Below, in pieces: positions 81-62,337 of a DNA stretch of 64,000 nt. A program made the translations under genes and the position numbers. The notes under the pieces are model-generated. The model worked only from the letters and a program-made list of their open reading frames with translations, made no database searches and was not told the origin of the DNA. This stretch comes from Hydrangea macrophylla (Eukaryota; Streptophyta; Magnoliopsida; Cornales; Hydrangeaceae), in assembly GCA_033977485.1 (NCBI GenBank), contig CM066995.1:46373736-46437735 (forward strand), read 5' to 3'. Every line of letters begins with the position of its first letter. Position 1 is the first letter of the stretch.

Positions 81-1578
81 TGAAGGAAAAATAGGTTTAA
101 AATATTTTAAACGTGTAGCGAAAAGAATGAGTTTCAAAAAACTTATTTGTATGCCCGGATCTACTACCCGTTAATTCTATAGATGTGTACTAACAAGAGG
201 GAGAAGAAATATACCTTAGGTCTTAAACCCAATTCCGAAATCTTCAACCTTGGTGATGCAGTAGCCTCCATTAGGTTGTCTTCACCCTTATGACTCCTAC
301 GGATGCTTCCCAGAGAGACTAGAGATGGTGGGATCTCTAACAAGGAGGATAGGAAGGTTTGGGAAGCCCTAAACAAGTTTTACAACTTTCGTATAGGAAA
401 AACGACGATCATCAAACTCTATACGTAGCTGCCCTATTTATAGATTTTCAAAATTGACTTTAACCTTCGATCGATCGAAGTGACTTCTATCGATCGAACT
501 TTCGATCGATTAAACTACTTTTCATCACTCAAACCTACCTAGGCTTCAATCGATCAAAACCTGTTCGATCGATCGAACCTGTCATGACATGATCCTCTTG
601 TGCCTTTCTAAGTATCCTAGTGGAGCTAAGAGTGGGACCTCCTAGGCTCTTTATTGTTGGCTCAGATCAGTTGTTAATTCCCATAACCAAATTCTTTGTT
701 CAGCAAACTAACCAACTGATCAGTTAACATTTACTCCACTATAAAATGGTAACTAAACTCCAACGCAAAAGAACATATCTGAAGTGATAACTAGACTTGT
801 ATGTTGTACTAATGTCCCTCTACCTTCAGCATTCGTAATCATATTTAGGTAGTCGGATAACTATTACTGTCAACCTGAATCATGAATACCTCTTGTATTC
901 CTTGAGTCCCATTCACCTTTCATGATTACCAAACATGTTGATAACTACTTATCAATAAGACTGCAGTTCTCAGTAATTAACTTGGTGACATTCTTAAGGG
1001 AATGCTTACTATGAATCAGAGGGTAGATTCTATCTTGACAACATATGTTCACAACCCTATGAACATAACATACCCAAGATACCCAGGTGTTGATCTTCTA
1101 TAGATCTCACTGAATGGTAAGTCAAAGCAGCCATATCCACAGTCTGTGTTTGTAATCGTCTCAAGATTGAGAACACATATCTTATACAAGTTATTAGTTC
1201 CTATCGACTGATTGACAGTCTTGAGTGTGAATAGGAAAGCTCAAGTCCGTCAATGCACTATAATATTAACCAAGAGTCATACTCTAGTGATTGAGATTCA
1301 TCACTCCATTCAATGGTAGTTGATCATGCTATAGTGTATACCTGATAAGATATCTAGTCTCATCATCCACTGTGACAAGTTCTAAGTATCAAAGAATAGT
1401 AATTCATATCTCACTTGTATGTATCTCATACACACACGAATTACCTACTATGATACTTAAAGATTAAACAATCATCTCATGAAAGAAACATACACAATGA
1501 AATGTAAAGCTGATATCCATATATTAAAATGTCAATGTCTCATACATAAATTAATGGTTTGAGGGCACAAACCCATCA
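81..1578 (-). repeat. 5' LTR of a minus-strand Ty1-copia element
   Basis: The segment starts TGAAGG and ends CCATCA, so the two ends are short imperfect inverted repeats with canonical TG/CA termini. The primer-binding site abuts the left end, which makes this the 5' LTR of an element read right to left. To its right the sequence changes abruptly to Ty3-gypsy protease coding sequence, so the copia element appears to have landed in, and removed from view, the 5' part of Tat-A. No second LTR is in the window, so the target duplication cannot be tested. Its length (1498 bp) is long for copia but within range for large-LTR lineages. Small open frames inside it look like chance. Confidence 0.68.
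435..577 (-). promoter_or_regulatory. Copia LTR promoter: TATA box plus palindrome cluster
   Basis: On the minus strand TATAAATA lies at 442-435. Immediately upstream (466-577) are five copies or variants of the palindrome TTCGATCGATCGAA, perfect at 466-479 and 564-577, with degenerate copies between. The gap from the cluster to the TATA box is 24 bp. The TATA call rests on position within the LTR and sequence only. Confidence 0.5.
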
Positions 1579-1580
1579 CT

Positions 1581-1853
1581 TTGAATGTGTGTCTACTCCG
1601 TACAGCGAAAACAATGGGTTTGGATGAGTCGACTTTCATACCATCCGAGCAAAAATTGAGAGCACATGGAAACACCCATAGGGCGATTATGAGCATCGTC
1701 TTCCTTAATCTTACTATCGAACCATTGGAAAAGGTAGCTAAGTTCCAGATTATTAACATTCTCGCTTCTTTTAATCTGCTATTGGGTAGACCTTGGTTGG
1801 ATAGTTTGAATACAATTCTATCAACAATTTACCAAAAGGTTAAATGTATTTAG
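1581..1853 (+). pseudogene. Tat-A protease fragment (C-terminal half)
   Basis: The 90-residue frame ends with NLLLGRPWLDSL, the conserved hydrophobic/Gly-Arg-Pro block near the C-terminus of plant Ty3-gypsy aspartic proteases, which process Gag-Pol in the virus-like particle. The catalytic D-S/T-G part would lie upstream and is lost at the copia junction. A TAG ends the frame, but recognisable coding sequence continues in the linker that follows. This is a remnant, not an active enzyme. Confidence 0.7.
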
Positions 1854-2854
1854 GGAAACAAGGTTTGTGATATCTTTGGGGATAGTTGGGTCTGAGTAAA
1901 TAAAGCGTCATTAAGCGCCCCAATTTTGGAGGTTTAGTTACAAGAAGAGCAAACAAGTTTGGGAGGATTTGAATTCATTAGCACGATAGATGATGGAAAG
2001 CCGTAGAAGTTTCTACCGTTATATATTGACCAATATACAAGTCCATTAATCGCAGGAATAATGAAAAAAATGGGGTTCTTTTCAGGTATGGGTTTGGGGA
2101 AAATGCACCAAGGTTTGTCAGAATTTCTAGATGTCAAGACGCAGACCCATACTCGTGGGTTGGGATATCAGCCATCAAGGCAAGAGTTGAAAGAAAAGAA
2201 GTAAGTAGCTGACGCGCCACTACAACCATAGCCATGGATGGATTGGAAGGATTAATGCTTAAAGCCAAGTTTTGAGATCTTTTTCCCACATGAGTTTACC
2301 GAATACGAAGACCCATACTTACAGGTTCCTGCAAAGCCAACCTCTGTAAAAGATTGGATTTGTACCTTAGATGGTTCGGCAATGAAAAATCTACTTGAAG
2401 AAGAAAATAGGGGAACTGAAGAGGGCAATCTTGAGAAAATTATGAAGGAAGAAGATGGGAAAAGTCAGAGTGAAGGAAAGATCTAAGATAATGAAGCAAG
2501 GAAGGATGGGCCAAAGAACAAAGAAGAGCCAAAAAATGAGGAAGAAACAGGGGGTCTGTCGGGCTGTGACTTTGTAGAACTCAAACAAGGGTTCAACAAA
2601 GAATGGGTTTTTATGTCTAGTGATAGATATCCCCCCTCCCCAGAGTCTGTAATAGCCCATATGAAGCATCTTAATATTTCTATGTCTATTGTAATCACTC
2701 CAAAGAATATTAATGAGAATATGACCAGTTCTGCTTACTTGACTACGCATAATGAATGTGATACATGTAATGAATGTGATGAAATTCTAGATGAATTGCA
2801 AAAATTATTTGAAAAAAAATTGAATCTGCATGTAAAATCATAGGGAGCACTCTA
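1854..2854 (+). pseudogene. Tat-A protease-RT linker with G-patch domain
   Basis: Conceptual reading across stops gives a glycine-rich G-patch at about 2055-2180 (MGFFSGMGLGKMHQG followed by RGLGYQP). G-patch modules bind nucleic acid or helicases and follow the protease in Ogre/Tat-type elements, as in some retroviruses. Downstream the frame is acidic and lysine-rich and then reaches a Cys/Asp-rich stretch (NECDTCNECDEILDEL) at 2752-2800, just before the RT. Several stop codons interrupt the reading. The domain name rests on motif spacing seen by eye. Confidence 0.6.
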
Positions 2855-3885
2855 ATGATTAATCTAGGGAATGAAAATAATCCACAAAATGTTTTTATTG
2901 GCTCCACACTTAGCAATGAGGAAAGCATGGAATTAATTAATCTATTAAATGAATTCAAAGATGTCTTTGCATGGCCTTATTATGATATGCTAGGAATTGA
3001 TCCGAAGATAGTCCAATATAATATCCCACTCTTCCCAAATTCAAAACTTGTAAAACAAAAATTGAGGCAAATGAGGCCTGAATGGGCGCTTAAAGTAAAA
3101 GAGGAAGTTGAAAAGCAATTGAGATCTGGATTCTTGATTGTCATTGTGTATCATGAATTGGTTGCCAACATTGTGGCAGTTCCAAAGAAGGACGGGCGTG
3201 TTAGGGTTTGGTTTGATTTCTGAGATTTAAACAAAGGCAGCCCTAAAGACAATTTTCCTTTACCCCATATCAATGTGCTAGTTGATAATATTGCAAGGCA
3301 TGAACTTTTGTCTTTTATGGTTGGATTTTCAGGGTATAATCAGATTCTTATGCCACCGAAGGTAGGGAGAAGATTACTTTCATCGCACCTTGGGGTACTT
3401 TTTGCTATAGGATAATGCCATTCGGGCTTAAGAACATAGGTGCGAGTTACCAAAGGGCTGCCACTACATTGCTATATGACATGATCCATAAGGAAGTGGA
3501 GGTATATGTGGATGATATGATAGTAAAATCCAAAAAAAGAGGGGGGAACTTGGAGGCATTGAGGTAGTTTTTTGAGAGATTAAGAAAATTCATAATGAAG
3601 TTGAACCCACAGAAGTGCAACTTTAGGGTTACCATTGGAAAGTTGCTAGGATTTCTTATCACGTAAAGGGGGATTGAGGTGGACCCAGCGAAAATAAAAA
3701 CTATCGTAGAAATGCAGCCACTGAAGAGTGAGAAGGAGTTGACGGGATTTTTAGGTAGGGTACAATTCATTAGCCGTTTTATGTCGAAACTTACCATGAC
3801 TTGTGACCCACTGTTCAAGTTAGTAAAGAAAGGGGAGAAGTTTGAATGGGACAGCCAATGCCAAAAAGCCTTTAAAAAGATCTAA
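2855..3885 (+). pseudogene. Tat-A reverse transcriptase, broken
   Basis: Consecutive fragments give the full order of RT blocks: FKDVFAWPYYDMLGIDP, an AVPKKDGRVRVW block (3175-3210), DLNKGSPKDNFPLP, the FSGYNQI block, MPFGLKNIGASYQR and the catalytic EVYVDDMIVKSK (around 3500-3535). The two aspartates of YVDD are present. Stops occur at 3221-3223, near 3566 and 3664, and the spacing near 3350-3360 suggests a small indel. The enzyme would copy genomic RNA into cDNA inside the particle; it cannot be made as one protein here. Confidence 0.8.
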
Positions 3886-4951
3886 ACCTACCTCAAAAAC
3901 CCACCTGTCCTAGCACCACCCGAACCCGAAAAACCTTTATTGCTATACTTGTCTAAAATCAAAAATTCAATGGGGTATATGTTGGCCTAAGAAGAAGAAG
4001 AGGGGCATGTGGAGAAAGCTATATATTCTTTGAGTAAAAGGATGACCGGATATGAGCTAAACTATTCACCATTAAAGAAAGCCTGTTGGGCTTTGGTGTG
4101 TTGTACCCATCGCCTTAGGTATTATATGCTAGCCTTCCCCATAGATATCCCGAACGGACCCACTCAAATACCTATTCGAAAAGCCTGTGCTAACCAGTAG
4201 GATTTCCCGGTGGACCATGATGTTAGCCGAGTTCGATATAAGATATGTTACTTCCAAATCTGTTAAAGGGAGAGCCGTCGCCGAATATCTAGCTGACCTT
4301 TCTATAAAATTCGAGGAGAAGGGAGAGTTTAAATTTCTAGATGAAGGATTGATTGAGGTAAAGGAAGATTTCTGGAGAATGCATTTCGATGGAGCAGCCA
4401 ATCAGATAGGATATGGAGTAGGAATCATCCTTATATCACCCAGTGGAGCCCCTACCCTGCTAGCCGTCAAGCTTAAGTATAATTTGACCAATAATACAAC
4501 AGAGTATGAAGTGTGTATAATCGGAATGGAAGTAGCATTGGCATTGAAAGTTGAAAGGATTGATATCTTTAGACATTCTAACTTGATAATATCACAAGTG
4601 TGAGGTGATTGGAGAGTGAAGTATGAGAAATTATGACCTTACCATAAATACCTAGAGAGATTGAAAGTGCAATTTAGAAAGATCTCATTCTATTTCTTTC
4701 CCCGTGAAGAGAACCAATTAGCCGATTCTCTAGCAACCTTGGCCTTAATGATCCAAATCCTTATAGGAATTACCATGATCCCGTTGTCCATAGAAGAAAG
4801 AACCCAACCCTCATTTGAGTTAATTACAGCCATTGAAAAGAGAGAGGGGGTGAAGTACCTTGTTATGTGGATGTTTAGAGTTTTATTGAAAAAGGAGAAT
4901 ACCCCCGAGGGAGCTTTAGAGAAGGATATAAAGGATAGCTCATGCTTTTAA
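3886..4951 (+). pseudogene. Tat-A dual RNase H region
   Basis: The first part (3886-4170) keeps RNase H signatures of the RT-linked domain (LLLYLSKIKNSMGYML, SLSKRMTGYELNYSPLKKAC, CTHRLRYYML). After an out-of-frame stretch, 4370-4760 encodes a second archaeal/plant-type RNase H: MHFDGAANQIGYGVGIIL, NNTTEYEVCIIGMEVAL and FPREENQLADSLATLAL, supplying D, E and D positions. Two RNase H domains in tandem are typical of Tat/Ogre. Stops and a frame change at about 4187-4200 separate the parts. Confidence 0.72.
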
Positions 4952-6083: not shown

Positions 6084-6119
6084 TAAAAGATGAAATGATA
6101 ATGAGAATGGGATGAGAGA

Positions 6120-6302
6120 TTATATAAGAAGGAGAATAAGGAGGCTTGGAAAATTTAAATGAGCAAGAACAATCTTTATAAAGAAAAAGGGAACTGAGCG
6201 ACACTTGATGAAAAGCGGCGGCACTCATTGAGTGTTGGCCAGTACTTGATGAGTGTCGCGTGGCATTCAATGAGTGCCGGTCAGATCATTGAGTGCCGGT
6301 CA
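6120..6302 (-). promoter_or_regulatory. Candidate promoter of the DUF7745-like antisense gene
   Basis: TATATAA lies on the minus strand at 6126-6120, about 37 bp before the ATG. At 6197-6302, 71 bp further upstream, is a cluster of degenerate copies of the palindrome CGGCACTCACTGAGTGCCG (for example GGCACTCATTGAGTG at 6220, GGCATTCAATGAGTGCC at 6261). The same palindrome type occurs before the PMD gene and in the Ogre LTRs. The predicted 5' leader would be very short. Confidence 0.45.
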
Positions 6303-6555: not shown

Positions 6556-6904
6556 TCATCTAATGAGAAAATCATCATCAAAAGAAAAGTTTGAATGTTT
6601 CCTTGTCCATGTAGGGCCTTCATGAAATAAAAGAGAAGGGGATAAGCATAAATTATCCTCGTCGGCGGCGAGGATTCCTTCTGGGCGCCTGTGGAGCTGT
6701 CTGACTTCCTCCAGCTCCACCTTTCCACCATCACCACCTTTTCCATCATCACCACCACCACCTCCGCCTTGGTCGCTGCCTCCAGCACCCCCATGATAGC
6801 CGCCTCCTTGGCTCATTTTGGAGCTCCTAAATTTGCCTCCGTAAGGCAATAATCTCTTTCGCCTACAAAAGAGAAGAATAAAAGAAATAAAGATATGAAA
6901 TGAA

Positions 6905-7225: not shown

Positions 7226-9039
7226 CGTTCGCAAACTCATTTGTGCAGTCTCATAAAAAAAGAGAGAAAGAAAAGAAATGCTTAAGATATATACCTGAGC
7301 CCTGACCTGAAGCTCTACGTTGGCCCTTGCTCCATTAGCCTGAAAAGAATTGGGGTTCAAGCATTAGTATTGAATAATTGAGAGTCTAAAAATAACAAAG
7401 CAAAGTAATCTGGAAACTTACTCTCTATTCACGACCATGTATCCAATGCTGAACCGTATGAGCGTATGATAGCCCCTCCTCAGCATTATCTCTAGGAACG
7501 GTGTCATATTACAGAGGAATAGTCGATACATCCTGAGTGTATGGAGGTAGCTGGTGTAAGGTCTCCTGATCCATATAGACCATGGGTACGTTCCAATTCC
7601 ATTGTGGAAGGGCTGGAGGATCAGCTGCTCCAAGGATAGGCTACAAATAAGTCAAGGTTTTAATACTCACTATGGTAAGGCTAAAGAAATTCTTGAACAA
7701 TAAAAGGGGAGGAGGTGATTACCCGAGTAACTTCCATTAGAGGAAAGTTATGCATAAGCAAAAATTAAAAGTTGATGTAACCATCAGGGCCCTCTATATA
7801 GTTCACCATGTCTTCCCCACCCAGGGCTATGACGAAGTCGTCATGGTCCATGGTCTCAGTTCTCCTCATAGTAGCTAGGGGAGCCCTCTGCATATAGAAG
7901 ACAGGAGCGATTAGGGACTGCCTCGTCACCCTCTCGCCTAAATACCACTCTCGGCACGCCTCTCCCACCATCAAGATCCTCATCCAAGCGAAGCCCCAGG
8001 CAGCCTGAAGTTTCACACTAGCCTTTGGGAGGGCCGCCAACCATGGATTCCATGTCACATGGACATCCCTCAAGTTGGTGAAGAAATTCCTACAGCCAAC
8101 AAAGTCATGGGCCCCCACCTTTCGACACGTCGCTCCCTTCTTCCACTTTAAACCCTGAGGGAGAATAGCATTTTCATTTGCTCTAGTGCTGGGAGCCCTC
8201 ATACGGAGATACTCAAAAGGCCATATCTGTAAGGAAAATATTAGAGGGTGAGTTCAATGGTTGAAAATAAAATCAAGAAAAATTCTAAATGAATAAAAAG
8301 AAGGATAAGAATAAAATATTATCTCCCAAGCCCTCCATAACCCACCAGTAGAGGAGAAATTACCCTAGAAAACACTGCTCATGTGGCGATAAAGAGTGGC
8401 CAACCCTGTTCCTCCCCAGTTATACTAAGGGATGCGACCAATGTCCTCCAAGGAAGCCAGATATGCCAGATGGATCCTATCTCCTCTCATGCTCATCATA
8501 GAGCAGCCCAGTATGTACATGAAGAATGCTCTGATCATGTGATCGTCAATGAAAACTTGGCTCCTGAAAGTGTCTAGAAACCACTTTGTGGAATAATAAA
8601 CTCCTTGCGATGGGCTCCAAGGATGTCAATGATCTGCTCATGCTGACTCCCAAGATCATCATAACGGGTCACGGGAAGGCCGCCAAAAGGGATGCCAATA
8701 ATCATCGCAAAATCTAGCGGGGTCATCGTCATTTCCCCGTACGGAAGGTAGAAGGTGTTTGTAGTATCCCACCATCGCTCTGCTAAGGCTTGGATTTGGG
8801 CCATATCATTGGAGCTCTTCTCTAATAATTGCACGAAGAGCCCAAAGCCTGCAACATTGATCCCATTTTTAATTGTATCGGGGAGCTCGTTATACCACCT
8901 ATGCCCATGAGGTAAACTCCCGTGGCTCTTGAGAGCAGTCTCGGGCATCTAAAAAAGGAGAGAAATAAAATAAAAAAAGGTTAGGAGGCAAAGAAAGATG
9001 ATAAAGGATAGGTGATAATGATGAGATCAACGAAATCTG

Positions 9040-10595: not shown

Positions 10596-10776
10596 ATTTA
10601 TAGGAGAGAATGAGAGTAATGAGAAAAAGAAAAGAAAAGTTTTGTTTTAAGCAAACTGCCAGACCCAGCGGCAGTCGATGAAAAGTCTGCGACACTCGCT
10701 GAGTACTGCTCGGCAGTCAGTGACTACCGCACCGGCACTCACTGAGTGCCGCTGCATGATCTCGAGTGCCGCTGCG
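10596..10776 (-). promoter_or_regulatory. Candidate promoter of the antisense PMD gene
   Basis: Minus-strand TATAAAT lies at 10602-10596. A palindrome cluster follows upstream at 10666-10776, including the 18-base perfect palindrome GGCACTCACTGAGTGCC with flanking C and G (about 10733-10751) and variants such as GGCAGTCAGTGACTACCG. The cluster-to-TATA gap is 64 bp. Confidence 0.5.
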
Positions 10777-12882: not shown

Positions 12883-14750
12883 TGCAGACACCCCAATTTT
12901 GATTGATCGTCAAATTCAGGGGATGATTACCTCTAGACCGATGACGACAATGTCTGGAGAAATTTTTTGAAGAATTCTTCAATCCTAATAAAAGTTTTCG
13001 AAAAAGAAGTACATATGAGGAGTGACAGTTTGAAAATTAATTTCAAAACAAAAGTATAAAATAATTTGAAAAGGAAAATAAAAAAGGGAGAATGAAAAGA
13101 AGAGGAAAGAAAGAATTTTTTAAAAGAAAAAGAACAAAACAAAAAGAAAAGAACACAAAAAGAATTTTTGTTTTAAAATCATATATAATCTATATATGTA
13201 TAAGTATAGTAGTGTATAAACATATGTTTGAAAAATAAATGAAAAAGGTGGGAATTCCGTTAGAAGCGGCACGCGGCGATGCCGGCGGTAGCGAGTGCCG
13301 CACCGACATTCACTGAGTGCCACGCCGGCATTCAGTGTGTGCCGAAACAGCATTCACAGAGTGCCGCACACAACTTAGTGAGTGTCGCCCGCTGTAATAG
13401 ACTGTTTTTCTTCAATACGTATAGAATATCATTGCACATGGGTTTCCACCCCGAATTTACAAATTTGACCCCATGAAAATGGTCTATATAAGGAGGTGTT
13501 CACCTCCATTATAGGGATCTTCTTCCATCATCCTTCTTGAACATGAAATATATGAGAAAACATAGAGACTTAAGAGAAATTGGGAGATCTTTGAAGAATT
13601 TTTGAAGAATTGGAAGAAGAATTTAAAGAACTTGGAAGATCTTCATCAAGTGTTTAGCAAGATCCTGAGGTTATTAGAGGTAACCTTCTAATCCTACCTA
13701 GAATTAGGCTAATTCAATCATAGTTCATACATCTAGGACTTTACACATTTTCAAAAAGTCGCTTCCTACCTCGTTTCATCACACACCACATAGAATTGTG
13801 ATTGAATTTCCACTTGCTTTCATTGATTTGGATCTAAATAGAGCCTTGGGTTTAAAATAAAAACTAGTTTGTAAAAGAATTTTCACTTTGATTTTTCAAA
13901 TAAACTTTGATTCTACCTCTTTTTGTCTACATTTTCTTTTTAAAATCCATGCGATCTTCAATATCTCATTGGATCCCCTTTAGTTTGATTATTCAATCCC
14001 CTATGATCCTATGATTTATATGGGATCTAAGGTTGATCATGGTTATATCCACACATGGTTAGTAGGTTCAAGTCTTAATTCCTGACTTGGATCCTTCAAC
14101 TTATAATCTCATTATTCTTCCATAATTCCTACGGAGGTTCATGCGGATTTGATCTTATTTAGTCTCCAAGGACCATTAATTTGAGAGGAGGATAGGATAT
14201 AATAAGTTCATATCCCTCGAGGATCATCAACTTGAGAGAGGGATTGACTTGATAATTCTTATGACTTAAATATTGATATTGGTGCAGTGAATTCATGAAC
14301 CCACTATGATCAAAGATTTTTTATTTAAATCATGGTCTATGGGATTTAAATGAGACCAATTGAAAAGTGTTCATAACACATGAATCTACCACCAAACTTT
14401 TTGTTTTGTTAAAATTCAATGGTTAACATGGTTTGGTCTTATGATTAGTGAACTAGTCACTCTCTATCCAAAATTTCATAATAGTGAGGCAGTATTGATT
14501 TAGGTATATCAAAACCTTAACTAATCATTTTTTACCTCAAATAATTTTTTCTGCATAGTTGAATGTGTTAAGGAGATTCCCTAACAAGAATGAAGTCATT
14601 CGGATTTATTTACTATTTTTAGAAAATCATACAAAATCTCTGGACAGAGAGTTGTAAAATTCTGAGTAAAACCGTTTGATCTATGATTTTTAGTGTCTAG
14701 TTTTGGTTCAATTCCCGGAGATTGAACCGTTTGATCTTTGATTTTCTTTA
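12883..14750 (+). repeat. 3' LTR of Tat-A, first part (interrupted)
   Basis: The sequence is homologous base block by base block with the reverse complement of the solo LTR at 51807-54754: same start, same palindrome cluster, same TATA region and same internal text such as TCTCTGGACAGAGAGTTGTA. Homology stops at about 14750 within GATTTTCTTT and resumes at 38395. Roughly 130 bp of LTR are missing at the junction, so insertion was followed by a small deletion. Confidence 0.8.
13266..13491 (+). promoter_or_regulatory. Ogre LTR promoter: palindrome cluster plus TATA
   Basis: A cluster of degenerate CGGCACTCACTGAGTGCCG palindromes covers 13266-13391. TATATAA follows at 13485-13491, 94 bp downstream, and a GGAGGTGTTCACCTCC stem lies just after it. 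The solo LTR has the same arrangement. Confidence 0.55.
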
Positions 14751-18032: not shown

Positions 18033-19651
18033 TGCAAAGCGGGGGTATTTGTAAAATACAACCGCGCTAAAAGGAAGAATTGCATTGGTTTTAATCACAA
18101 CTTCCCGTTTTATCTGCAAATTGCATTACAAGGCTAGTTTTCATACAATGTGATTAATCTATGATAAGTTGTATTGTTTTAGCTATTGTTTGTGCAGATC
18201 TCTGCTGTATGGACTAGAGAGATGAACGTCAGGACAACTGGAATGCTGTAGTGCAGACAAAAGAATTCAAACCTAAAGTTTGAAGTTCGAGCGATCGACT
18301 ATAGTTCGATCGATCGAAGGTTCGATCGCTTAAAGAAGGTTGAAGCGCTTGAGTTCCAGATGTTCAATCGATCGAACATGGTATTTTCAGAAACTTTCGT
18401 GTACGCAGCAGGTGCGGAATCGTAACCCTAGCCTTTAGGTTTTCTATATATATAAGCATTGTATACGTCCCAAAGGACGCCCACTCTTGCTTTTTATCAG
18501 TTTTTAGAGAGAGAGATAGAGAGTTTATATTGTTTTGTAGGTTTTTATTCAAGGTTTTATGTTGTGATCTCGGATTCTTACAGTTTAATACGAGTTTTTC
18601 ATTCCAGGTTACTTATTTATTGTTTTATTTACATTCTGTACTTAGTTAGTCGTAGTTTAATCTTCAATCTCGTAGTATTGCATGCTAGATAAGTTAAAAT
18701 CACTAGTTTTCATAGTTTTCATGAAAAACTCACATCCAAACAAAGCCTTAATGTTTTCAAATGATAAAAACCGATCTGTGATACTCCAGACGATGTCTGA
18801 GTAGTCCTAGGGTTGGGAGAACACGATGAAACAGTGATCTCCAGCCTCTGCCATACAGCAGAATAAATCCTGTGTTCGATCGATCGGAGGTAGTTCGATC
18901 GATCGAACCAGAGATAGTCAAGCGATCGAAGGACATTTCAATCGATTGAGGGATGAAGGCTTTCGATCGATCGAACGATCGTCGATCGATAGAACTCTCT
19001 GATTCTTGAGGATGTTCCCTGCAGTATTCCAGGACCTTTTGTTTTTTAGATTCGTCATCATACTGTCCCTAAATGCTCAGTTTGTCAAAACAATTTTCAA
19101 AATCAAGGCCCTAAAGCATTTTCTTTCAATACATTTTGCAAACCACTTTCAATGCTAACACCATTGTAGGTGCGAGTCTTAACTATTGAATTAAACCGCT
19201 TTCAGATGTTTCAAGTTAACTGTGATGATATAGTCCCGGTCATGAAAGGGCTATGGATTCTTTAGTTTCAGAGAAATATGGAAAACTGTGGGTAATATAC
19301 TCCTTAGTGCTTCAAAGTAACTGCATGGTAGATGGTTAGATTACTGTGGATTCGTGTAATCCCAACACTTTCTTCTTAAAGTTAAATCCTATTTTAGAAT
19401 ATTGCTTTAATTAGCTAATTAGCTCTTTAGTTTAATCTGAATTACTTTTGTTAGTAGTCTTAGTTTGTGGAACTTTGTGTTCTGTACCATTATTAAATCT
19501 TATTGATTTTGTTTCGCTTTCTTTTGAGTTTAGTCTAAGTTAATAGGTCAACACCTTCCCTGTGGGATCGACCTGGTCTTACCAGTTACTACTTGCACGT
19601 CTATCTACACTTGGGTATTGCACAAGAGCACACAATTATATTCTCGTGTCA
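18033..19651 (+). repeat. Athila-1 5' LTR
   Basis: Begins TGCAAAGCGGGGG and ends TTCTCGTGTCA. It aligns without gaps to 30906-32524. It carries palindrome clusters at 18286-18376 and 18875-18994 either side of the TATA box. Confidence 0.95.
18286..18455 (+). promoter_or_regulatory. Athila LTR promoter: palindrome cluster plus TATA
   Basis: The cluster at 18286-18376 has TTCGATCGATCGAA and four variants (including the different palindrome TTGAAGCGCTTGAG). TATATATATAA lies at 18445-18455, 69 bp downstream. The copy in the 3' LTR is at 31159-31328. Transcription would start near 18480. Confidence 0.6.
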
Positions 19652-26719: not shown

Positions 26720-27347
26720 TTCGATCGATCGAACCTATTTTGATCGATCAAAAACCCTGCATGTTCAAGCGCTTGAACGCTTTATTCAATCGATTGAGCG
26801 ATTTACTTTCGATCGATCGAACGTTGTTTTAAACGAGGCGTCTTCAGAACACCTCTTCAGTTCCCTCACTCTCACACACTCGAGCGATCGCACACACAGA
26901 GAGGGCGACTCGGCAATTTTTCCATCTCTAGCATCCACACACCTCATTTTGGGGGCTTGGATTATCACCCTCATTATCATCTCACCTCCACTGCGTGTTT
27001 CTACACCGAGGTAGGCTCCACGAGCCCTTTGTCTTTCATTTTGTTAGAAAAATCCCAAGGGGGTGTCCCCTTGGTCTTAGGATTTCCCTTTTGTGGTTCA
27101 TTTGTGTTTCACTTTTCGTTTTCCCATTCATTTTTGTGATCGCAGCACATAGCTGTGTTCGATCGATCAAACTATTTTTGATCGATCGAAGCTGAAATGT
27201 TCGATCGATCAAACTATGCTCAAGCGATCGAATCCTACTCCAGTTCAAGCGATCGAACTAAGTTAGATCGATCGAACTAGAGTATTAGCAGTTTCTTTCT
27301 TTTTTCTTCCCTGTTCTAATCTGTGTCGTGTTACGTTCTATTTTCAG
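26720..27347 (+). promoter_or_regulatory. Candidate internal promoter, leader exon and intron of the env-like gene
   Basis: A palindrome cluster at 26720-26822 contains TTCGATCGATCGAA, TTCAAGCGCTTGAA and CAATCGATTG types. TTTTAAAC follows at 26827-26834, then a CT-rich leader with CTCTCACACAC. A donor (CACCGAG-GTAGGC) is at 27011 and an acceptor (CTATTTTCAG) ends at 27347, ten bases before the env-like ATG. The intron contains a second cluster at 27159-27278. The layout repeats that of the LTR. The TATA element is weak, so an internal start is an inference. Confidence 0.45.
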
Positions 27348-27357: not shown

Positions 27358-28779
27358 ATGAATCCAGTAACTGGCTACCACAAGTCCAAGCCCCTCAGCC
27401 TCACTATACCTGATCCGGTACCCGCACATGGGTTCCGGAATGCTGAGGATTGGGTATGGTACGAGCGTTATTTCCAGACGCGGAAGGTGATGATTGAGCA
27501 TCCTATCGAGTCTACTTGGTCGGAGCACCCGTGGTTCCTGACACGGATTCGCTCCATGCCCCACTGGTTCCATATACTCTCGCTGGCCAAGAGAGTAAAT
27601 CTGTCATGGATACGAGGTGCGTGTGCGACGATGATACGCGACCCGCACGTACCATTCACACATCATGCTTTCTTCCGGGGGTCGGGCGTTCGTCATCAGT
27701 CCCACTACAGTTTCGGCCGCCTTGGGGGTACCAGAGGTACCAGATTATATTTGTCCCCATCGTCCTGACGCACCTGAGACACCACCATCTGCCATTATCC
27801 GCGAGCTCACTGGAGGCGCCGTTCCTTCTTGGAATGGCGAGGTTTTGATTGAGGACCACTTCCTTACCGACGACTACCACATGCTTCACCTGGTCCTTAG
27901 CAATTGTCTCTTGGTGACCTCTTATCGAGAGAAGATCGCGGCTTGGTATACGCGAGTTTTATTTATAGTAGGGACAGGACAGCCGGTCTGCTTACCCTGG
28001 CTTTATATCGACTTCATGGTCCATCCCACCCGCTACATCGCCTCTAAGAAGCACCTGAAAGGTGCTTGGGCGATTCACAGAGTTATGGCTCAGGCTGGCT
28101 TTCCTGAGCTTGCTGAAAACAACCTTCGTGCTTCCCCCAGTCGATTTGGCGAGGCAGCGGCTCGCCGCTCCGACACCCAGAAGAGGAAACGAAAAGGAAA
28201 AGGGAAAGCGAAGGTGGGGGCGAAGAAGAAGAGGCGTGGTGGAACAGACACAGAGGCTGGAGCTTCAGGGACGCCCACAGAGGCTGAGGAGCTTGATACT
28301 GACGATGAGGAGGAGGATCCGGTTGCTGCTGTTCAGCAGTTCGAGTTGCGACAGCGGTCGCAGACTCAGGCCCAGGGAGAGTCTTCTTCCTCTGTGCCTT
28401 CCCGACAGTTTATGAGCTGCTATTGGAGGAGAGAGAGGCCAGGATTAGACTTGAGGGCCGGATGGATCAGCTGCAGACCTTGCTTGAGTCTATATTGATT
28501 CAGATTGGGGTTGATCAGGCCGTCCACTCTGCTCACCATCCTACGACTACCCCGTCTGCACCGCCTGCTGCCAATCCATCATTTTCTACTGCTCCTGCTC
28601 CTACTCCTACAGGTTTATCCACTTCTTCTGCTGCCGCCGATCCATCACTTTCTGCTCCACTTACTGCTAATCTTCCATCCCCGTCTGCTGCTGTTACACC
28701 TGCTACTGCACTACCGCCATCTGCACCCATTGACATTCCTTCTGACGTGGCTGATGATGATCCGTCGGGAGCCGCGTAG
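27358..28779 (+). pseudogene. Athila-1 env-like / 'putative plant transposon protein'
   Basis: The ATG at 27358 follows the predicted acceptor. The N-terminal half (WVWYERYFQTRKVMIEHPIE, AKRVNLSWIRGACATMIRDP, HHAFFRG, then FVISPTTVSAALGVPEVPDY) matches the domain found in Athila ORFs downstream of pol. A basic, NLS-like stretch, an acidic stretch and a Pro/Ala/Ser-rich C-terminus follow. A one-base insertion in a G run near 27680 and a second frameshift near 28412 break it; a coiled coil (REARIRLEGRMDQLQTLLES) follows the second. No transmembrane segment or furin-like site is seen, so an envelope role is doubtful. Confidence 0.75.
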
Positions 28780-30905: not shown

Positions 30906-32524
30906 TGCAAAGCGGGGGTATTTGTAAAATACAACCGCGCTAAAAGGAAGAATTGCATTGGTTTTAATCACAACTTCCCGTTTTATCTGCAAATTGCATT
31001 ACAAGGCTAGTTTTCATACAATGTGATTAATCTATGATAAGTTGTATTGTTTTAGCTATTGTTTGTGCAGATCTCTGCTGTATGGACTAGAGAGATGAAC
31101 GTCAGGACAACTGGAATGCTGTAGTGCAGACAAAAGAATTCAAACCTAAAGTTTGAAGTTCGAGCGATCGACTATAGTTCGATCGATCGAAGGTTCGATC
31201 GCTTAAAGAAGGTTGAAGCGCTTGAGTTCCAGATGTTCAATCGATCGAACATGGTATTTTCAGAAACTTTCGCGTACGCAGCAGGTGCGGAATTGTAACC
31301 CTAGCCTTTAGGTTTTCTATATATATAAGCATTGTATATGTCCCAAAGGACGCCCACTCTTGCTTTTTATCAGTTTTTAGAGAGAGAGATAGAGAGTTTA
31401 TATTGTTTTGTAGGTTTTTATTCAAGGTTTTATGTTATGATCTCGGATTCTTACAGTTTAATACGAGTTTTTCATTCCAGGTTACTTATTTATTGTTTTA
31501 TTTACATTCTGTACTTAGTTAGTCGTAGTTTAATCTTCAATCTCGTAGTATTGCATGCTAGATAAGTTAAAATCACTAGTTTTCATATTTTTCATAAAAA
31601 ACTCACATCCAAACAAAGCCTTAATGTTTTCATATGATAAAAACCGATCTGTGATACTCCAGACGATGTCTGAGTAGTCCTAGGGTTGGGAGAACACGAT
31701 GAAACAGTGATCTCCAGCCTCTGCCATGCAGCAGAATAAATCCTGTGTTCGATCGATCGGAGGTAATTCGATCGATCGAACCAGAGATAGTCAAGCGATC
31801 GAAGGACATTTCGATCGATTGAGGGATGAAGGCTTTCGATCGATCGAACGATCGTCGATCGATCGAACTCTCTGATTCTAGAGGATGTTCCCTGCAGTAT
31901 TCCAGGACCTTTTGTTTTGGAGATTCGTTATCATACTGTCCCTAAATGCTCAGTTTGTCAAAACAGTTTTCAAAATCAAGGCCCTAAGGCATTTTCTTTC
32001 AATACATTTTGCAAACCACTTTCAATGCTAACACCATTGTAGGTGCGAGTCTTAACTATTGAATTAAACCGCTTTCACATGTTTCAAGTTAACTGTGATG
32101 ATATAGTCCCGGTCATGAAAGGGCTATGGATTCTTTATTTTCAGAGAAATATGGAAAACTGTGGGTAATATACTCCTTAGTGCTTCAAAGTAACTACATG
32201 GTAGATGGTTAGCTTACTGTGGATTCGTGTAATCCCAACACTTTCTTCTTAAAGTTAAATCCTATTTTAGAATATTGCTTTAATTAGCTAATTAGCTCTT
32301 TAGTTTAATCTGAATTACTTTCGTTAGTAGTCTTAGTTTGTAGAACTTTGTGTTCTGTACCATTATTAAATCTTAATGATTTTGTTTCGCTTTCTTTTGA
32401 GTTTAGTCTAAGTTAATAGGTCATCACCTTCCCTGTGGGATCGACCTGGTCTTACCAGTTACTACTTGCACGTCTACCTACACTTGGGTATTGCACAAGA
32501 GCACACAATTATATTCTCATGTCA
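30906..32524 (+). repeat. Athila-1 3' LTR
   Basis: Same 1619-bp length as the 5' LTR, with about 27 substitutions, many of them C/T or G/A. It ends TTCTCATGTCA and is followed by the target duplication CACAG at 32525-32529. Confidence 0.95.
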
Positions 32525-51806: not shown

Positions 51807-54754
51807 TGTGGATATCGCATTTTTCTAACCCACAGATTTTTCTTTTAAAATTCCTTTAAATTTCAGAACAAATGAGTCGCCACTTAATTTTTAGAAGGAA
51901 AATTAAGAAACCATTTTAAAGCAACTGATCTTTTGCGAAACCAAAGATTAACTAGGTCCGGGGATTATGGAATGAGAAGGGAAGGAGCCCATCGGACTAA
52001 AACACACCTTCTCATCCTATCTCGCGAAAGGCCTCTACTCAACATCCTTTTAATTGAATTACTAATCTAAGCATGCCCTCAACTAATACATATGTATATG
52101 TATACATTACACAAACATGTCAAAATGGTGTAAAATTACTAATCTACAAAATATCATTCAAAAGCCAAGTAATTCAAGTAGCAAGCAATATGATATGCAA
52201 TAAAGAACAAGAGAACTTACCCGGGATCCAGCCGCGAATATTAAACGTGCAATGCATGCGATTTAAATAAAAACTAGGAAAAGAGTCTCTAATCCATATA
52301 TACAAGTAAAGCAAAACCTAATTCTAAGGTGACGCGCGTTAAGTTGAAAAATCAATAAAATAAAGATAAACTAAAGAGGAGTTCAAGAAATCAAACCTTA
52401 ATAGCGCTACAAAACAAAGGGTTAGTCCACATGATATACAATATATAAAGTTGGATCTTAAATAACAATCCTAGACTTCTAGCTTAAATCTATCAAATGT
52501 AATTAAATCTAAAGCAACCAAGTCCTAATTATAAGTGTCAAGCCATATGAATCTGTACATGAAAAGAATAAATTGTTAGAGTACTCAATGATTTAGATCA
52601 CTTAAACTTTGAATTCAAGCTTAACTAATCATTATTGAATATGGTTTGAGCTCTAGGTCATAGGAAAGTCATTTGGATCATTATTTACAAAGTTGGTCAA
52701 ATCTGTCATAAAATTTTGAAAATTGCAGAGAGCAGACCAGATCTTTAAGAAAATAAAAAGCATGCTTCCCGTGGTTTGATCTTGATGATTTTTGGACACA
52801 AGATGACTCTGTGTGTCTAGTTTCCAAATCAAAAAGAAAATCAAAGTTTCAACGGTTAGATCTCTGGGAAAAGGACAACCACCAAACATCACTCAGACAT
52901 GTACAACTCTCTGTCCAGAGATTTTGTTTGATTTTTTAAAAATAGCAAAAAGATCATAAATGCTTTGTTCTTTTTAGGGTAGCTTCATAACACATTAATA
53001 TACTTAGAAAAAATTATTTTGGGTCACAAATACTTGATTAAGGTTCTGATTTGCTTATTTCAAAAGGGTGTTGCTGTTCTGAAACTCTGGGCAGATTATA
53101 GTGTCTTCACAAAACTCATGACCAAACCACTTTAAACATGAAATCTCCTTAAAACAAAAATTGCAGTGGTAGAACTTTGAGTTATTGACACTTTCCCATT
53201 GGTTTCACTTGATTCCAACGGTTAGATTTTGAACTAAAAATCTTTGATCAAAATCGGTTTATGAATCCACTATTTCATTGTCAAGTTCAACTTTTATTTG
53301 TTAACCCCAACTATTTGACCATGAAGTTGGACTTAAGCCAAACCATTTTCTCCTACCATTTGATGGTCATTGGAGGCTAAAGACCTTCATATTTGTTGAT
53401 TTCAAATAAAGTATGAATAGACTTCATGAAATCTTAAGATAATGAATCTAAACCATGGAGATGGGCTTAGACTCAAACTACTTTCTCCTACCATTTGATG
53501 GTCATTGGAGATGAAGACATGACTAATACTCATGAGTCTCAAAGGAATATAGAGAGGATTCCATGAAACATCAAGGTAGAGGACCTAAGTCATAAGTATG
53601 GACTTGGATCCATCTATTTGCTTATAAAATGAAGTGATGATCAAACTTTGACTCCCATGTGAAGCATAAGCTTACATAAGGTTCAAAAGATCAAACTCAA
53701 AAAATTTCAAGAGAGACATTGAAGATCTCCAAGAATTCCAAAAGAAATGTGTAAAAAAGAAGAAAACACAAGAATGAAAACACAAGGAAGAAAGAAAAAA
53801 ACACAAGGAAGAAAGAAAAAAACACAAGAATGAAAACATAACTAAAATTTAGAGGATCACCTCCAACTATCCTCAAAGCTTCTCTACTTTGAAGATCTTC
53901 CAAGCTCTTCTTCAAGCTCTCCCAAAACTCTCTATCTCTCTCAAATATGTGTTGTTATATTGGTATCTTTTGGTATATCCCCTTTCTCCTCTTGTATATT
54001 TTATGTCTCTCTTCCCTCTATGAAGATACCTCTTCTTATATAGACAAAAACACCTAGGTAATTTCAATGAATTCAGAGTAAAAGACAGGTGTAAATGCCT
54101 CATTTGGTGGTACAATACGTACTCCTTGAAAATAGACAGACTGCTACACAGGGCGGCATTTAAAAATCTCTTGCGGCAGTCAGTGGATGCCGCAACGGCA
54201 CTCCGTGAATGTCGCGGCGGCATTCCATGACTGCCGCGCGGTACTTATTGAGAGCCGCGGAAAACTATTAATGGCCGCGTTTTAGTCAGCCTTACTTTAT
54301 CAGTTTTTTTGTTTTTATCCGCATACACATACGTATTGTACCACAAAATACGGACTGTTAAAGCAAACGGCAGTCAGCAATTGTCGGCGGCACTCAGTAA
54401 ATGCCGGACCGGCATTCTGTGAGTGCCATCCGGCACTCACCGAATGTCGTTCAGCACTCACTGAGTGCCGCAAAATTTTACCGTGTGCCAGTTTTTGTTG
54501 AACTTCCCCTTTTAGGTCTTTTCCTTCCTCCTTTTTCTTAAAGAAACTTATTTTCGAAGATTTTTTTCCAAAAGTGATGTTTTATACCTGAATTCTCCTA
54601 AATACCTGGTATTTCAATCTGTGAAAATTTTACCGCGTTTGGAGAACTTTCTGAAGAGCTTAGAATACTTCGAATCTTTCGGTCCTTATCATCATTGGAC
54701 GTGGAGGTGACGCTCTCCTAAATTCGACGGTCGGTCAAAATCGGGGTGTCTACA
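51807..54754 (-). repeat. Solo LTR of the Ogre (Tat-A) family (2948 bp)
   Basis: The plus-strand ends are TGTGGATATCGC and GGGGTGTCTACA, flanked on both sides by AGCAC (51802-51806 and 54755-54759). The interior aligns to the two halves of the Tat-A LTR. No internal element sequence is present, so unequal recombination between the two LTRs of one element probably removed the rest. TATATAA (minus strand) is at 54042-54036. Small open frames in it are not genes. Confidence 0.92.
54036..54475 (-). promoter_or_regulatory. Ogre solo-LTR promoter region with two palindrome clusters
   Basis: Upstream (to the right) of the minus-strand TATA box lie clusters at about 54152-54260 and 54366-54475. They contain GGCACTCACTGAGTGCC and variants such as GGCATTCTGTGAGTGCC. 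The nearer cluster is about 110 bp from the TATA box. Confidence 0.55.
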
Positions 54755-56019: not shown

Positions 56020-57207
56020 AGATGAAGAAAGTTATTGAAGAAAAATGCCTTAAGGCTTAAAAACCTTCAAAGTGGTTTGCAAAAATTATTGAAGAAAAAT
56101 GCCTTAAGGCTTAAAGTTAAAAAACTGTTTTGACAAACTGAGCATATGGGGACAGCTTGATAACAAATCTTGAAAACAGAAAGTCTAGGAATATTGCAAA
56201 GGATCAACCCAAGAATCTGAAGGTTCGATCGATTGATGCGCTTTCGATCGATCGAACATCATCATCTCTCAATCGATTGAAATGCCTTTGATCGCTTGAC
56301 TATATCTCTACTTCGATTGATCAAACTAACTTCGATCGATCAAACACAGGTTTTATTCTGCTGTATGGCAAAGGCTAGAGATCATTGTTTCATCGTGATC
56401 TCCCAACTCTGGGACTGCTCAAACATGGTCTGAAGTACTGCAGATTTGTTTTTAATGTAAAAGTTCATTAAGGTCTTGTTTGTTTGCGATTTAAACATGC
56501 AAATTATTAAAACTACGGATTTTTTCGCTACTACTATGAAAAACTATGATTATAACAGTTTAAACTACGAGATTAAACAAACAGAATATGAATTACTGAG
56601 ATAAAAGAACCTGGAACATATAACTTTGATTGACTTACTGAAAAACCAAGCCAAAACCAATATTCAACCTTGAAAAACCTACAAAACCAAAAGTAAATCT
56701 CTCTATCTCTCTATAAACTGTCAAAACTAAAGTTGGGCATCCTCTAGGACGTGTTTATAACCAATATTTATACTAAAACCTAAAACTAGGGTTGATTACA
56801 ATACGTCTACTGCGTGCGTGTAAGTTTCTAATAAAAGCATGTTCGATCAATCGAACTTCACTCGATCGCTTGAACCTTGAATTATTCGAACGCTTGAACA
56901 TCCTTCGATCGATCGAAACCTCGATCACTTGACAGTTCTTCGATCGCTCGAACTCCACTTTTCATCTTGAATTATCTTGTTTATAATCAAGCTTTTCTTT
57001 TTATCCCGTTATTCATTCCTAATCACAACACAGCAGCATATCTGCACAAAATAACAACTAAAACAACACAACTTATCATAGATTTGTCACATTGTCTATA
57101 AACTGGCATTATAGCACAAATTTCAGATAAAACAGAGAATTGTAAACTATAACCATATATTTCCTTATTTTAGTGTGGTTGTATTTTACAAATACCCCCG
57201 CTTGTCA
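56020..57207 (-). repeat. Athila-2 5' LTR, partial
   Basis: Minus-strand start TGACAAGCGGGGGTATTTGT corresponds to TGCAAAGCGGGGG of Athila-1. TATAAATA lies at 56772-56765 with a palindrome cluster upstream at 56842-56954 and another downstream at about 56224-56345. The LTR end is missing, and a 29-base segment (GAAGAAAAATGCCTTAAGGC and flanks) is duplicated at 56035 and 56090. Confidence 0.82.
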
Positions 57208-58185: not shown

Positions 58186-58189
58186 GTCC

Positions 58190-58900: not shown

Positions 58901-59097
58901 ATAATTTTAATACATGATATTGGATGTAATGTTCTTACCAAGAGTTGTGGGTTGAGAAACCTCGTCATCTTCAACCTCTTTGCCCCTTATCTCATTTTTG
59001 TCATATTTGTATCTTCATTTTCGTAACTCTCTCTTGCTCTCTCTTTTATATCTATATTATGTTAATGTTAATACATGTCAATCATATGAAAAAAAAA

Positions 59098-60441: not shown

Positions 60442-60556
60442 AAAAAAAATAATGTTCGTTCATTTTTAAACATAACATAACTTTACATTTCATATCAGCT
60501 CAAAGCCGGCTGGACCTTATTAGAGACCAACAATCACCAGTTACAAAAAAAAATTA

Positions 60557-60808: not shown

Positions 60809-60813
60809 TAATA

Positions 60814-60850
<37 letters not shown>

Positions 60851-61996: not shown

Positions 61997-61997
<1 letters not shown>
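61377..61997. mobile_element. hAT-like non-autonomous element (621 bp)
   Basis: The left end CATGGGCGGACCCAAG and the complement of the right end, CAGTGGCGGACCCAAG, are inverted repeats typical of plant hAT termini. The flanks (AAAGAAGG and AGAGAGAG) do not give a clean 8-bp duplication because of the adjoining GA tract. No transposase is encoded. Confidence 0.6.
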
Positions 61998-62039
<42 letters not shown>

Positions 62040-62056
62040 TGTGTGTGTGTGTGTGT
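61998..62056. repeat. (GA)n followed by (GT)n microsatellite
   Basis: About 40 bases of GA repeats with one AAAG interruption, then about 16 bases of GT repeats abutting the next element. Confidence 0.95.
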
Positions 62057-62156
62057 AATACCCTGTATTTTTGTAATATATTATGTGAATAAGACCCTGT
62101 ATGCTTCTTTTAATACTTGTTTGAGCCTGGCCTTACCCTTGGTATAATTTGGATAC

Positions 62157-62337
62157 CAATCGATTAACAAGTTTTCCAATCGATTGTCTTATTTTGGATA
62201 CCAATCGATTGAACTTTATACCAATAGATTGCTTTTGTCAATCGATTGACACTTATGCCAATCGATTCGAGGCAGCTGGGCAGATTCTTTTGCTTTGGAT
62301 GGGGAGAGGCCACGTGAACACTTTCCCTCTATATATA
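62157..62337 (+). promoter_or_regulatory. Promoter: CAATCGATTG cluster plus TATA
   Basis: Six copies or variants of CAATCGATTG occupy 62157-62270. TATATATA follows at 62330-62337, 60 bp downstream. A leader exon and the donor at 62613 follow, and ten more CAATCGATTG copies occur in the predicted intron (62742-62931). Confidence 0.5.

What the first reader, a model, noticed from the sequence alone, without database searches (positions are those of the whole stretch)
435..62337. Palindrome clusters just upstream of TATA boxes in unrelated retroelement promoters
Seen directly: nine candidate promoters each have a group of short degenerate palindromes 24-130 bp upstream of a TATA-like box. They are the copia LTR (466-577, TATA 435-442), Athila-1 LTRs (18286-18376, TATA 18445; and the 3' copy), Athila-2 LTR (56842-56954, TATA 56765), two Ogre LTRs (13266-13391, TATA 13485; 54152-54475, TATA 54036), the 62-kb LTR (62157-62270, TATA 62330) and both antisense genes of Tat-A (6197-6302, TATA 6120; 10666-10776, TATA 10596). 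The palindrome differs between families but the placement does not. Known parallel: VANC anti-silencing proteins of VANDAL transposons bind clusters of short motifs in their own elements. Inference: each lineage may have a dimeric DNA-binding factor, element- or host-encoded, reading its own motif.
Basis: partly seen in the sequence, partly recalled or inferred. Interest (0 to 1): 0.88.

Follow-up and report, generated by a model that had tools for sequence, protein, structure and literature searches.

The report
Palindrome arrays in retrotransposon promoters
Unrelated jumping genes in this plant genome carry the same two families of short mirror-image DNA words in evenly spaced rows at their switch-on regions, which look like docking sites for a protein whose identity is still unknown.

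Summary
All nine named promoters hold a palindrome cluster, but they fall into two motif classes, not one per family. Class I (TTCRATCGATYGAA) is shared by a Ty1/copia LTR, Ty3/gypsy Athila-1 and Athila-2 LTRs, and the 62-kb promoter. Class II (GGCAYTCANTGARTGCC) is shared by two Ogre/Tat promoters and both antisense Tat-A genes, one encoding a plant mobile domain (PMD) protein.

Genome-wide (2.22 Gb): TTCGATCGATCGAA occurs 101,717 times (reversed control 8) and GGCACTCANTGAGTGCC 7,132 times (control 0). In the places listed, spacing is quantised: class I at 16/19/25 bp (CAATCGATTG form 19-21/25), class II at 21-22 bp, with varied linkers.

'Just upstream of TATA' is only half the pattern. Class I elements have a second array about 0.4-0.8 kb downstream, Athila-1 also has arrays before its extra gene, and TATA proximity is above background only for class I upstream arrays.

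Best reading: cooperative docking sites for dimeric DNA-binding factors that control these promoters. For class II an element-encoded factor (PMD) is plausible. For class I, cross-superfamily sharing suggests one common factor, host-made or Athila-made. No factor, binding or expression was shown.

The parts
466..577 (-). Class I array A of the copia LTR (5 sites at <=2 mismatches; 6 in 6 of the 7 other copies fetched), upstream of TATA 442-435 read on the minus strand
   Evidence: copia-type domains PF13976 and PF25597 in the element body and LTR pair window 437-1575 / L070 1-1132 at 89%
435..442 (-). TATA-like box of the copia LTR
   Evidence: present in all 8 copies aligned, of 41 matches
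18286..18376 (+). Class I array A, Athila-1 5' LTR (spacings 19,16,19,23)
18875..18994 (+). Class I array B, Athila-1 5' LTR, 430-536 bp downstream of TATA (spacings 19,23,20,25,19)
31159..31249 (+). Class I array A, Athila-1 3' LTR
31748..31867 (+). Class I array B, Athila-1 3' LTR
26720..26821 (+). Class I array in the non-coding stretch between pol and the sense extra gene of Athila-1; I saw no TATA box by eye
   Evidence: homologous arrays in L034/L035/L037/L040
27158..27276 (+). Class I array just before an ATG at 27358 taken as the start of the Athila-1 sense extra gene, possibly in a 5' intron (candidate donor near 27011, loose scoring)
27635..28495 (+). Piece of the Athila-1 sense extra gene (weak Transposase_32 match, below Pfam's cut-off)
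   Evidence: PF20167 E 0.007, 16.7 bits, cut-off 45
56842..56954 (-). Class I array A, Athila-2 LTR
56224..56344 (-). Class I array B, Athila-2 LTR, 429-536 bp downstream of TATA
62157..62270 (+). Class I (CAATCGATTG form) array A of the 62-kb promoter, spacings 20,25,20,17,20 (six sites at <=1 mismatch)
62742..62931 (+). Class I (CAATCGATTG form) array B, 9 sites, spacings 20/25 alternating, 411-591 bp downstream of TATA
13266..13391 (+). Class II array (scored sites 13305-13365) upstream of TATA 13485 (Ogre-like promoter; LTR pair not verified here)
54152..54475 (-). Class II array, two groups of 4 sites at 21-22 bp (54175-54256 and 54389-54469), upstream of TATA at 54042 (Ogre-like promoter; LTR pair not verified)
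6197..6302 (-). Class II array (scored sites 6220 and 6262) upstream of Tat-A antisense gene 1 (DUF7745-like)
   Evidence: PF24924 E 5e-4, 19.7 bits, below cut-off 26, in 5821-6285
10666..10776 (-). Class II array (scored sites 10691, 10712, 10734) upstream of Tat-A antisense gene 2 (plant mobile domain protein)
8577..8948 (-). Piece of the Tat-A antisense PMD gene
   Evidence: PF10536 E 1e-11, 45 bits, above cut-off 34.9; 13 protein relatives at E <= 0.001, all PF10536
7768..8253 (-). Second piece of the Tat-A antisense PMD gene
   Evidence: PF10536 E 3e-8, 33.5 bits, just below cut-off 34.9

Best explanation
The clusters are cis-regulatory arrays. Each palindrome of 14-17 bp is a site for a protein dimer. 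Neighbouring dimers sit a fixed 16, 19-20 or 24-25 bp (class I) or 21-22 bp (class II) apart, so they probably contact each other and load cooperatively. Class I elements carry one array just upstream of the promoter and a second about 0.4-0.8 kb into the transcribed part, and the complex would switch on, or keep open, the element's promoters. Class II is probably read by a factor limited to the Tat/Ogre clade. The antisense PMD protein, whose own promoter carries the array, is the leading candidate (an autoregulatory, VANC-like activator). Class I is probably read by one factor shared across superfamilies: a host transcription factor, or the product of Athila's sense extra gene with copia as a user that has sites only. 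Shown: motif, sharing, spacing in the listed places, genome-wide abundance, higher motif identity between two Athila lineages. Inferred: protein binding, dimerisation, activation, and who encodes the factor.
For: Abundance against reversed-pattern controls: 101,717 v 8; 7,132 v 0; doublets with centres up to 41 bp apart 55,739 v 0 and 117,426 v 1; class II half-site doublets 3,969 v 20. Spacing in the first places listed, all on contig C1: 62 of 63 CGATCGATCG doublets lie at 16, 19, 25 or 35 (16+19) bp although 11-41 were allowed (33 distinct sequences; 18 distinct 5-bp linkers at 19). 96 of 100 CAATCGATTG doublets (50 distinct) lie at 19-21 or 24-25; 31 of 50 class II doublets at 21-22 and the other 19 at 42-44. 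The same spacing set recurs in array clusters without flank homology (90 arrays: 12 clusters with 150-bp flanks; 8 with 200-bp flanks). Athila-1 v Athila-2 LTR: motif columns 0.851 identical, other columns 0.456, no shifted mask reaches it; near the arrays 0.786 v 0.593 (A) and 0.905 v 0.768 (B). Both Tat-A antisense promoters and the Ogre-like promoters share class II; of 5 other Tat PMD copies fetched (67-78% protein identity) 3 keep an array and 1 a single strong site plus decayed ones. The one copia copy read has no class I site between L070 113 and 6347, that is, none in its body, whereas Athila-1 also has arrays before its extra gene.
Against: Among 8 copia LTR copies motif columns are no more conserved than neighbours (0.943 v 0.948). 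In 5 Tat PMD promoters motif columns are not more conserved position by position (0.657 v 0.662). In the Athila comparison the mask was taken from Athila-1 and the aligner may be drawn to the repeated motif. Of 11 stretches upstream of other PMD hits (chosen among high-scoring PF10536 matches, 2.4-3.8 kb each, clade not determined, two of one family), only L054 has a strong palindrome cluster (7 against a shuffle maximum of 3); L058 is marginal (4 against 2), and none has an array of either class, so a general 'PMD gene = palindrome array' rule is not supported. TATA proximity is not above background for class II within 120 bp (5 of 28 arrays v 0.21), and none of the four Tat PMD copies with class II sites has a canonical TATA box near them. 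The PMD model was too poor to judge DNA binding (mean pLDDT 59). No binding or expression data exist here.
Confidence: 0.6

Rival explanations
1. Host-factor capture: both motifs are sites for ordinary plant transcription factors, acquired by different elements as ONSEN-type copia elements acquired heat-shock elements.
For: Class I is shared by Ty1/copia and Ty3/gypsy elements. The copia copy read carries no array in its body. Precedent: clustered HREs bound by HSFA2 in COPIA78 LTRs and repeated independent gains (passages of PMC5059998).
Against: Class II is also at the element's own antisense gene promoters, and class I also before Athila's extra gene, more than a promoter enhancer needs. 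I recall no plant factor with these long palindromes (recall, no call).
Confidence: 0.4
2. Element-encoded anti-silencing modules like VANC/VANDAL: each array is bound by a protein of the element (PMD or DUF7745 protein for Tat, the sense extra-gene product for Athila), which removes silencing and activates its own family; copia and the 62-kb element exploit Athila's.
For: Arrays at both the main promoter and the extra-gene promoters. VANC21 motifs lie in the VANC and VANB introns and upstream of VANA as dynamic repeats (passages of PMC5735166). The Tat PMD family is very abundant (9,360 first-look candidates, 150 scored, all 150 match) and many of the 150 have no stop inside. An extra gene with its own promoter and a nuclear product is known in Grande (passages of PMC7264820).
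Against: No DNA-binding activity of PMD, DUF7745 or Transposase_32 proteins was tested; of 11 other PMD upstream stretches one clearly has a palindrome cluster.
Confidence: 0.4
3. Host silencing landmarks: the arrays are targets by which the plant recognises and methylates these elements, kept only by descent.
For: Sites are CpG-rich and dense; sequence-guided silencing in plants is known (recalled, no call).
Against: Elements should lose a harmful site, yet motif columns are the better conserved ones between Athila lineages, and spacing is kept while linkers change.
Confidence: 0.08
4. Mutational by-product: tandem duplication spread a palindrome within LTRs, and high copy number explains the counts; no protein is involved.
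For: Counts are inflated by copy number; copia copies show no extra conservation at sites; the 62-kb B array looks like a 45-bp tandem repeat.
Against: Linkers are unrelated while spacing is fixed; the motif and spacing set are shared by elements without flank homology.
Confidence: 0.07

Closest known systems
VANC anti-silencing proteins and VANDAL targets (Arabidopsis)
   Same: Short motifs at high density in several non-coding stretches of the same element, including introns and upstream regions; motif differs between families; repeats turn over (passages of PMC5735166 and PMC10398659)
   Different: VANDAL are DNA transposons (recalled); the YAGTATTAY motif is arrayed in one orientation and is not a palindrome; here class I is shared across retrotransposon superfamilies, spacing is quantised, and no factor is known
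HSFA2-bound heat-responsive elements of COPIA78/ONSEN LTRs
   Same: Clustered sites in an LTR read by an oligomeric factor, gained repeatedly (passages of PMC5059998)
   Different: A known host factor and nGAAn motif; the arrays here are longer palindromes, also lie downstream and at extra genes
PMD proteins MAIN/MAIL1 with PP7L and the DOWN motif
   Same: PMD proteins are transposon-derived regulators needed for genes that carry a promoter motif (passages of PMC7156037 and PMC9899485)
   Different: The MORC1 DOWN site (CATGCAGTTT) resembles neither class; direct DNA binding by the PMD complex was still open in those papers; a later preprint on PMD-motif modules is recalled only and was not seen
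Grande gene23-type antisense extra genes of LTR retrotransposons
   Same: Antisense gene between pol and 3' LTR with its own promoter; gene product nuclear (passages of PMC7264820)
   Different: No shared palindrome array is mentioned in the passages seen; the review calls the functions unknown
En/Spm TnpA and its 12-bp subterminal motif (recalled)
   Same: Element-encoded dimeric protein binding multiple copies near its own methylation-sensitive promoter; its CCGACACTCTTA site resembles the class II half-site CCGGCACTCA (recalled, no test)
   Different: CACTA DNA transposon; a CACTA-end-like string (pattern recalled) was seen in only 3 of 15 class II loci, two of which overlap

Membership tests
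VANC/VANDAL-type anti-silencing system | Dense short motif in several non-coding regions of one element | tested here: met
   Athila-1: LTR arrays A and B, 26720-26821, 27158-27276; Tat-A: both antisense promoters
VANC/VANDAL-type anti-silencing system | Element encodes a protein homologous to VANC | not tested
   No VANC comparison was run; genes found match PMD, DUF7745 (below cut-off) and weakly Transposase_32
VANC/VANDAL-type anti-silencing system | Protein binds the motif and causes DNA methylation loss | not testable with these tools
   needs EMSA, ChIP-seq and bisulfite data
VANC/VANDAL-type anti-silencing system | Motifs arrayed in one orientation | tested here: not met
   Sites are palindromes and have no orientation
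ONSEN-type host transcription factor capture | Cluster of nGAAn heat-shock sites | tested here: not met
   Sites are TTCRATCGATYGAA or GGCAYTCANTGARTGCC; TTC and GAA are 8 bp apart in class I
ONSEN-type host transcription factor capture | Bound by a host factor | not testable with these tools
   no binding data
PMD protein-motif regulation | PMD gene in the element | tested here: met
   PF10536 in Tat-A; relatives throughout the genome; no PF10536 in the Athila-1 and copia pieces scanned, which are not whole elements
PMD protein-motif regulation | PMD genes in general carry a palindrome array at their promoter | tested here: not met
   Tat clade: window copy plus 3 of 5, a fourth with one strong site; elsewhere one clear case in 11 stretches, L058 marginal; promoters may lie outside some stretches
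Antisense extra gene of LTR retrotransposons (Grande gene23 type) | Gene antisense to pol with own promoter | tested here: inconclusive
   RVT_3 on + at 4145-4600, PMD and DUF7745-like pieces on - with arrays and TATA-like strings upstream; transcription not tested

The most novel reading that the evidence does not exclude
Two element-wide regulatory codes run much of this genome's retrotransposon transcription. In one, the Tat/Ogre clade carries its own PMD activator that reads a 17-bp palindrome at both its LTR and its own gene. In the other, Athila's extra gene makes a factor reading arrays of TTCRATCGATYGAA, and copia plus other families have evolved the same spaced array as free-riders, so unrelated superfamilies share one trans-factor.
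Probability: 0.25. Interest if true: 0.88.

Novelty: new variant of a known kind. Interest (0 to 1): 0.68.

Why it matters
If true, a DNA-binding code shared across Ty1/copia and Ty3/gypsy would show how retrotransposons escape or use host regulation, and would give a function to the antisense PMD genes and Athila extra genes whose role is open. The sites are explicit enough to test directly by one DNA pull-down with array probes.

Tried and rejected
Generic palindrome density as the measure: rejected as too blunt, since it found 4 of 9 named promoters. TATA proximity as the defining feature: rejected for class II. Tests on young copies for conservation: no excess, told above. PMD-array coupling as a general rule: not supported. 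PMD fold: model too poor, no fold search run. Homologues of the Athila extra gene piece: none at E <= 0.001 among 2,072 candidates. PDB relatives of the PMD piece: nothing better than E 0.35. Splice donors before array B: candidates in all five cases but the scoring is loose, so not relied on. Papers: CGATCGATCG with retrotransposon gave one paper, where the string is part of an artificial example sequence (passages of PMC10211496); Athila with TCGATCGA none; six terms on LTR palindromes and TATA gave one review, seen in the listing only. These searches do not prove absence in print. The count of the L054 palindrome CGACTTTANTAAAGTCG was asked ten times and never answered.

Correction made on the way: copia and one Athila array (L032) have the same spacing list, but read in opposite directions relative to TATA, so I claim a shared set of spacings, not one identical layout.


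Full report
WHAT WAS CHECKED. The window lies in a 2.22-Gb, 19-contig plant genome ('plant' rests on the elements found). I printed the nine promoters and scanned the window for the motifs that appear in them. All nine intervals contain a cluster. They fall into two classes. Class I, TTCRATCGATYGAA with common variants at the two positions flanking the central CG, is in the copia LTR, three Athila LTR copies and the 62-kb promoter; the last uses mostly the CAATCGATTG form, which also occurs inside Athila arrays. Class II, GGCAYTCANTGARTGCC, is in two Ogre-like promoters and upstream of both antisense Tat-A genes.

ELEMENT IDENTITIES. The copia call is supported: the body, just left of the window, encodes a GAG-pre-integrase domain, Pol_BBD and an SH3_retrovirus domain (typical of Ty1/copia, recalled), between an LTR pair 89% identical (the left LTR is cut by the end of L070). 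Athila-1 has gag, protease, RT, RNase H and integrase of Ty3/gypsy type, flanked by LTRs 98% identical. Athila-2 is a diverged relative on the other strand. The Tat-A antisense gene 2 encodes a plant mobile domain protein (PF10536); gene 1 is DUF7745-like, below the Pfam cut-off. The LTR status of the two Ogre-like and the 62-kb promoters was not verified.

CHANCE. Counting palindromes of any sequence is a weak test: it finds 4 of the 9 promoters and some unrelated stretches. Counting the motifs is decisive: 67 class I matches against 4 for the reversed consensus, 15 class II against 0. In the whole genome TTCGATCGATCGAA occurs 101,717 times against 8 for the same letters reversed, and GGCACTCANTGAGTGCC 7,132 times against 0. 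These counts reflect element copy number as well as motif number, and the first places listed include duplicated stretches.

SPACING. Patterns allowing any gap from 1 to 31 (class I) or 0 to 30 (class II) bases gave 55,739 CGATCGATCG doublets against 0, 117,426 CAATCGATTG doublets against 1 and 3,969 class II half-site doublets against 20. Of the 63 CGATCGATCG doublets listed (33 distinct sequences), 43 lie at 19 bp, 8 at 16, 7 at 25, 4 at 35 (19+16) and 1 at 18, with 18 different 5-bp linkers at 19. Of 100 CAATCGATTG doublets (50 distinct), 67 lie at 19-21, 29 at 24-25, 3 at 28 and 1 at 17; of 50 class II doublets, 31 lie at 21-22 and 19 at 42-44. These are only the first listed places, all on contig C1. 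The same spacing set occurs in array clusters with no flank homology: 90 arrays fall into 12 clusters with 150-bp flanks, 8 with 200-bp flanks. Linkers are unrelated, so spacing, not linker sequence, is what is kept.

PLACEMENT. Arrays lie upstream of TATA, but also downstream: relative to TATA, sites start at about +430 to +536 in both Athila lineages, +533 to +817 in copia and +411 to +591 in the 62-kb element. Athila-1 has two more arrays between pol and its sense extra gene (26720-26821, 27158-27276). A strict TATA box within 120 bp was found at 37 of 39 upstream class I arrays (copia 27/28, Athila 7/8, 62-kb with L024/L049 3/3), at 16 of 51 other class I arrays and at 5 of 28 class II arrays; random 110-bp segments of the same loci and window, not purged of arrays, give 0.21. 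I assigned clusters to 'upstream' myself; L024 and L049 are near-identical and have a box on both sides. With a looser box and 200 bp, 14 of the first 15 class II loci had one, without a matched background. Many loci in these counts overlap or are copies of one another, so they are not independent.

CONSERVATION. Between the Athila-1 and Athila-2 LTRs motif columns are 0.851 identical and other columns 0.456; no shifted mask reaches that. Within 60 bp of the arrays, the fairer comparison, the figures are 0.786 v 0.593 (A) and 0.905 v 0.768 (B). The mask came from Athila-1, and the aligner may be drawn to the repeated motif. Among 8 copia copies there is no difference (0.943 v 0.948), as expected if copies decay after insertion, but it is not support. 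Of 5 other Tat PMD copies fetched, 3 (L065, L068, L069) keep two or more scored class II sites at 20-22 or about 43 bp, L066 keeps one strong site with two decayed ones at 21-22 bp, and L067 has none; there is no extra position-by-position identity at motif columns (0.657 v 0.662), which suggests turnover of sites.

WHO READS THEM. Class II sits at the Ogre-like promoters and at the promoters of two genes inside the same kind of element, which suggests a clade-specific factor; the PMD protein is the best candidate. The PMD link is not general: of 11 upstream stretches of other PMD hits, only L054 has a strong palindrome cluster, with a different palindrome (about CGACTTTANTAAAGTCG), and L058 is marginal. 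Class I is shared by two superfamilies. The copia copy read carries no class I site in its body (L070 113-6347), whereas Athila-1 has arrays before an extra gene; so either a host factor reads class I or an Athila product does and copia exploits it. No structure or binding evidence could be obtained.

COMPARISON. VANC21 of Arabidopsis binds a short motif dense in introns and upstream regions of its own VANDAL21 element, and the motif repeats turn over quickly (passages of PMC5735166; PMC10398659). This is the closest working parallel, but its motif is not a palindrome. ONSEN shows the host-factor alternative (passages of PMC5059998). MAIN/MAIL1 show that PMD proteins regulate genes carrying a promoter motif, but direct binding was open and the motif differs (passages of PMC7156037, PMC9899485). 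Antisense extra genes with their own promoter are known in Grande (passages of PMC7264820). From recall only: En/Spm TnpA also binds repeated sites near its own promoter, and its site resembles the class II half-site.

VERDICT. A real, highly non-random regulatory architecture, bigger and more unified than reported; the kind is known (motif arrays in element promoters), while the cross-superfamily sharing, the fixed spacing and the paired upstream/downstream layout appear new within what I could search. The factor remains unidentified.

Noticed in passing
L054 (G000:C8:69377401-69380700), 1590-2055: Another PMD gene family (open frame 523 aa in many listed copies) has its own palindrome cluster upstream, about CGACTTTANTAAAGTCG (7 in 250 bp, shuffle maximum 3). 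The genome count did not complete.
   Followed up: partly
window 9048-9737: About 40-bp tandem repeat in the apparent intron just before the Tat-A PMD piece, many units holding GAGTC-N5-GACTC.
   Followed up: no
window 11235-12427 and 6894-7222: Two further tandem-repeat blocks around the Tat-A antisense genes (units near 119 bp and 40 bp).
   Followed up: no
L055 3115-3290: Tandem repeats with an inverted repeat (CTGGG...CCCAG) directly upstream of a TATA-like box read leftwards, between a pair of divergent PMD hits.
   Followed up: no
G000:C1, about 10,000-600,000 and 600,000-1,270,000: Listed motif places repeat nearly identically in neighbouring blocks at the start of contig C1, pointing to a large duplication or an assembly artefact.
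   Followed up: no
genome-wide: The Tat-A PMD piece has 9,360 first-look candidates; all 150 scored match, and 28 share the score 195.6 at 67% identity without stops, suggesting recent amplification.
   Followed up: partly
window 42013, 58192, 60989, 61521: The only class I matches (<=2 mismatches) that lie alone, outside arrays; about the number the reversed control gives (4).
   Followed up: no
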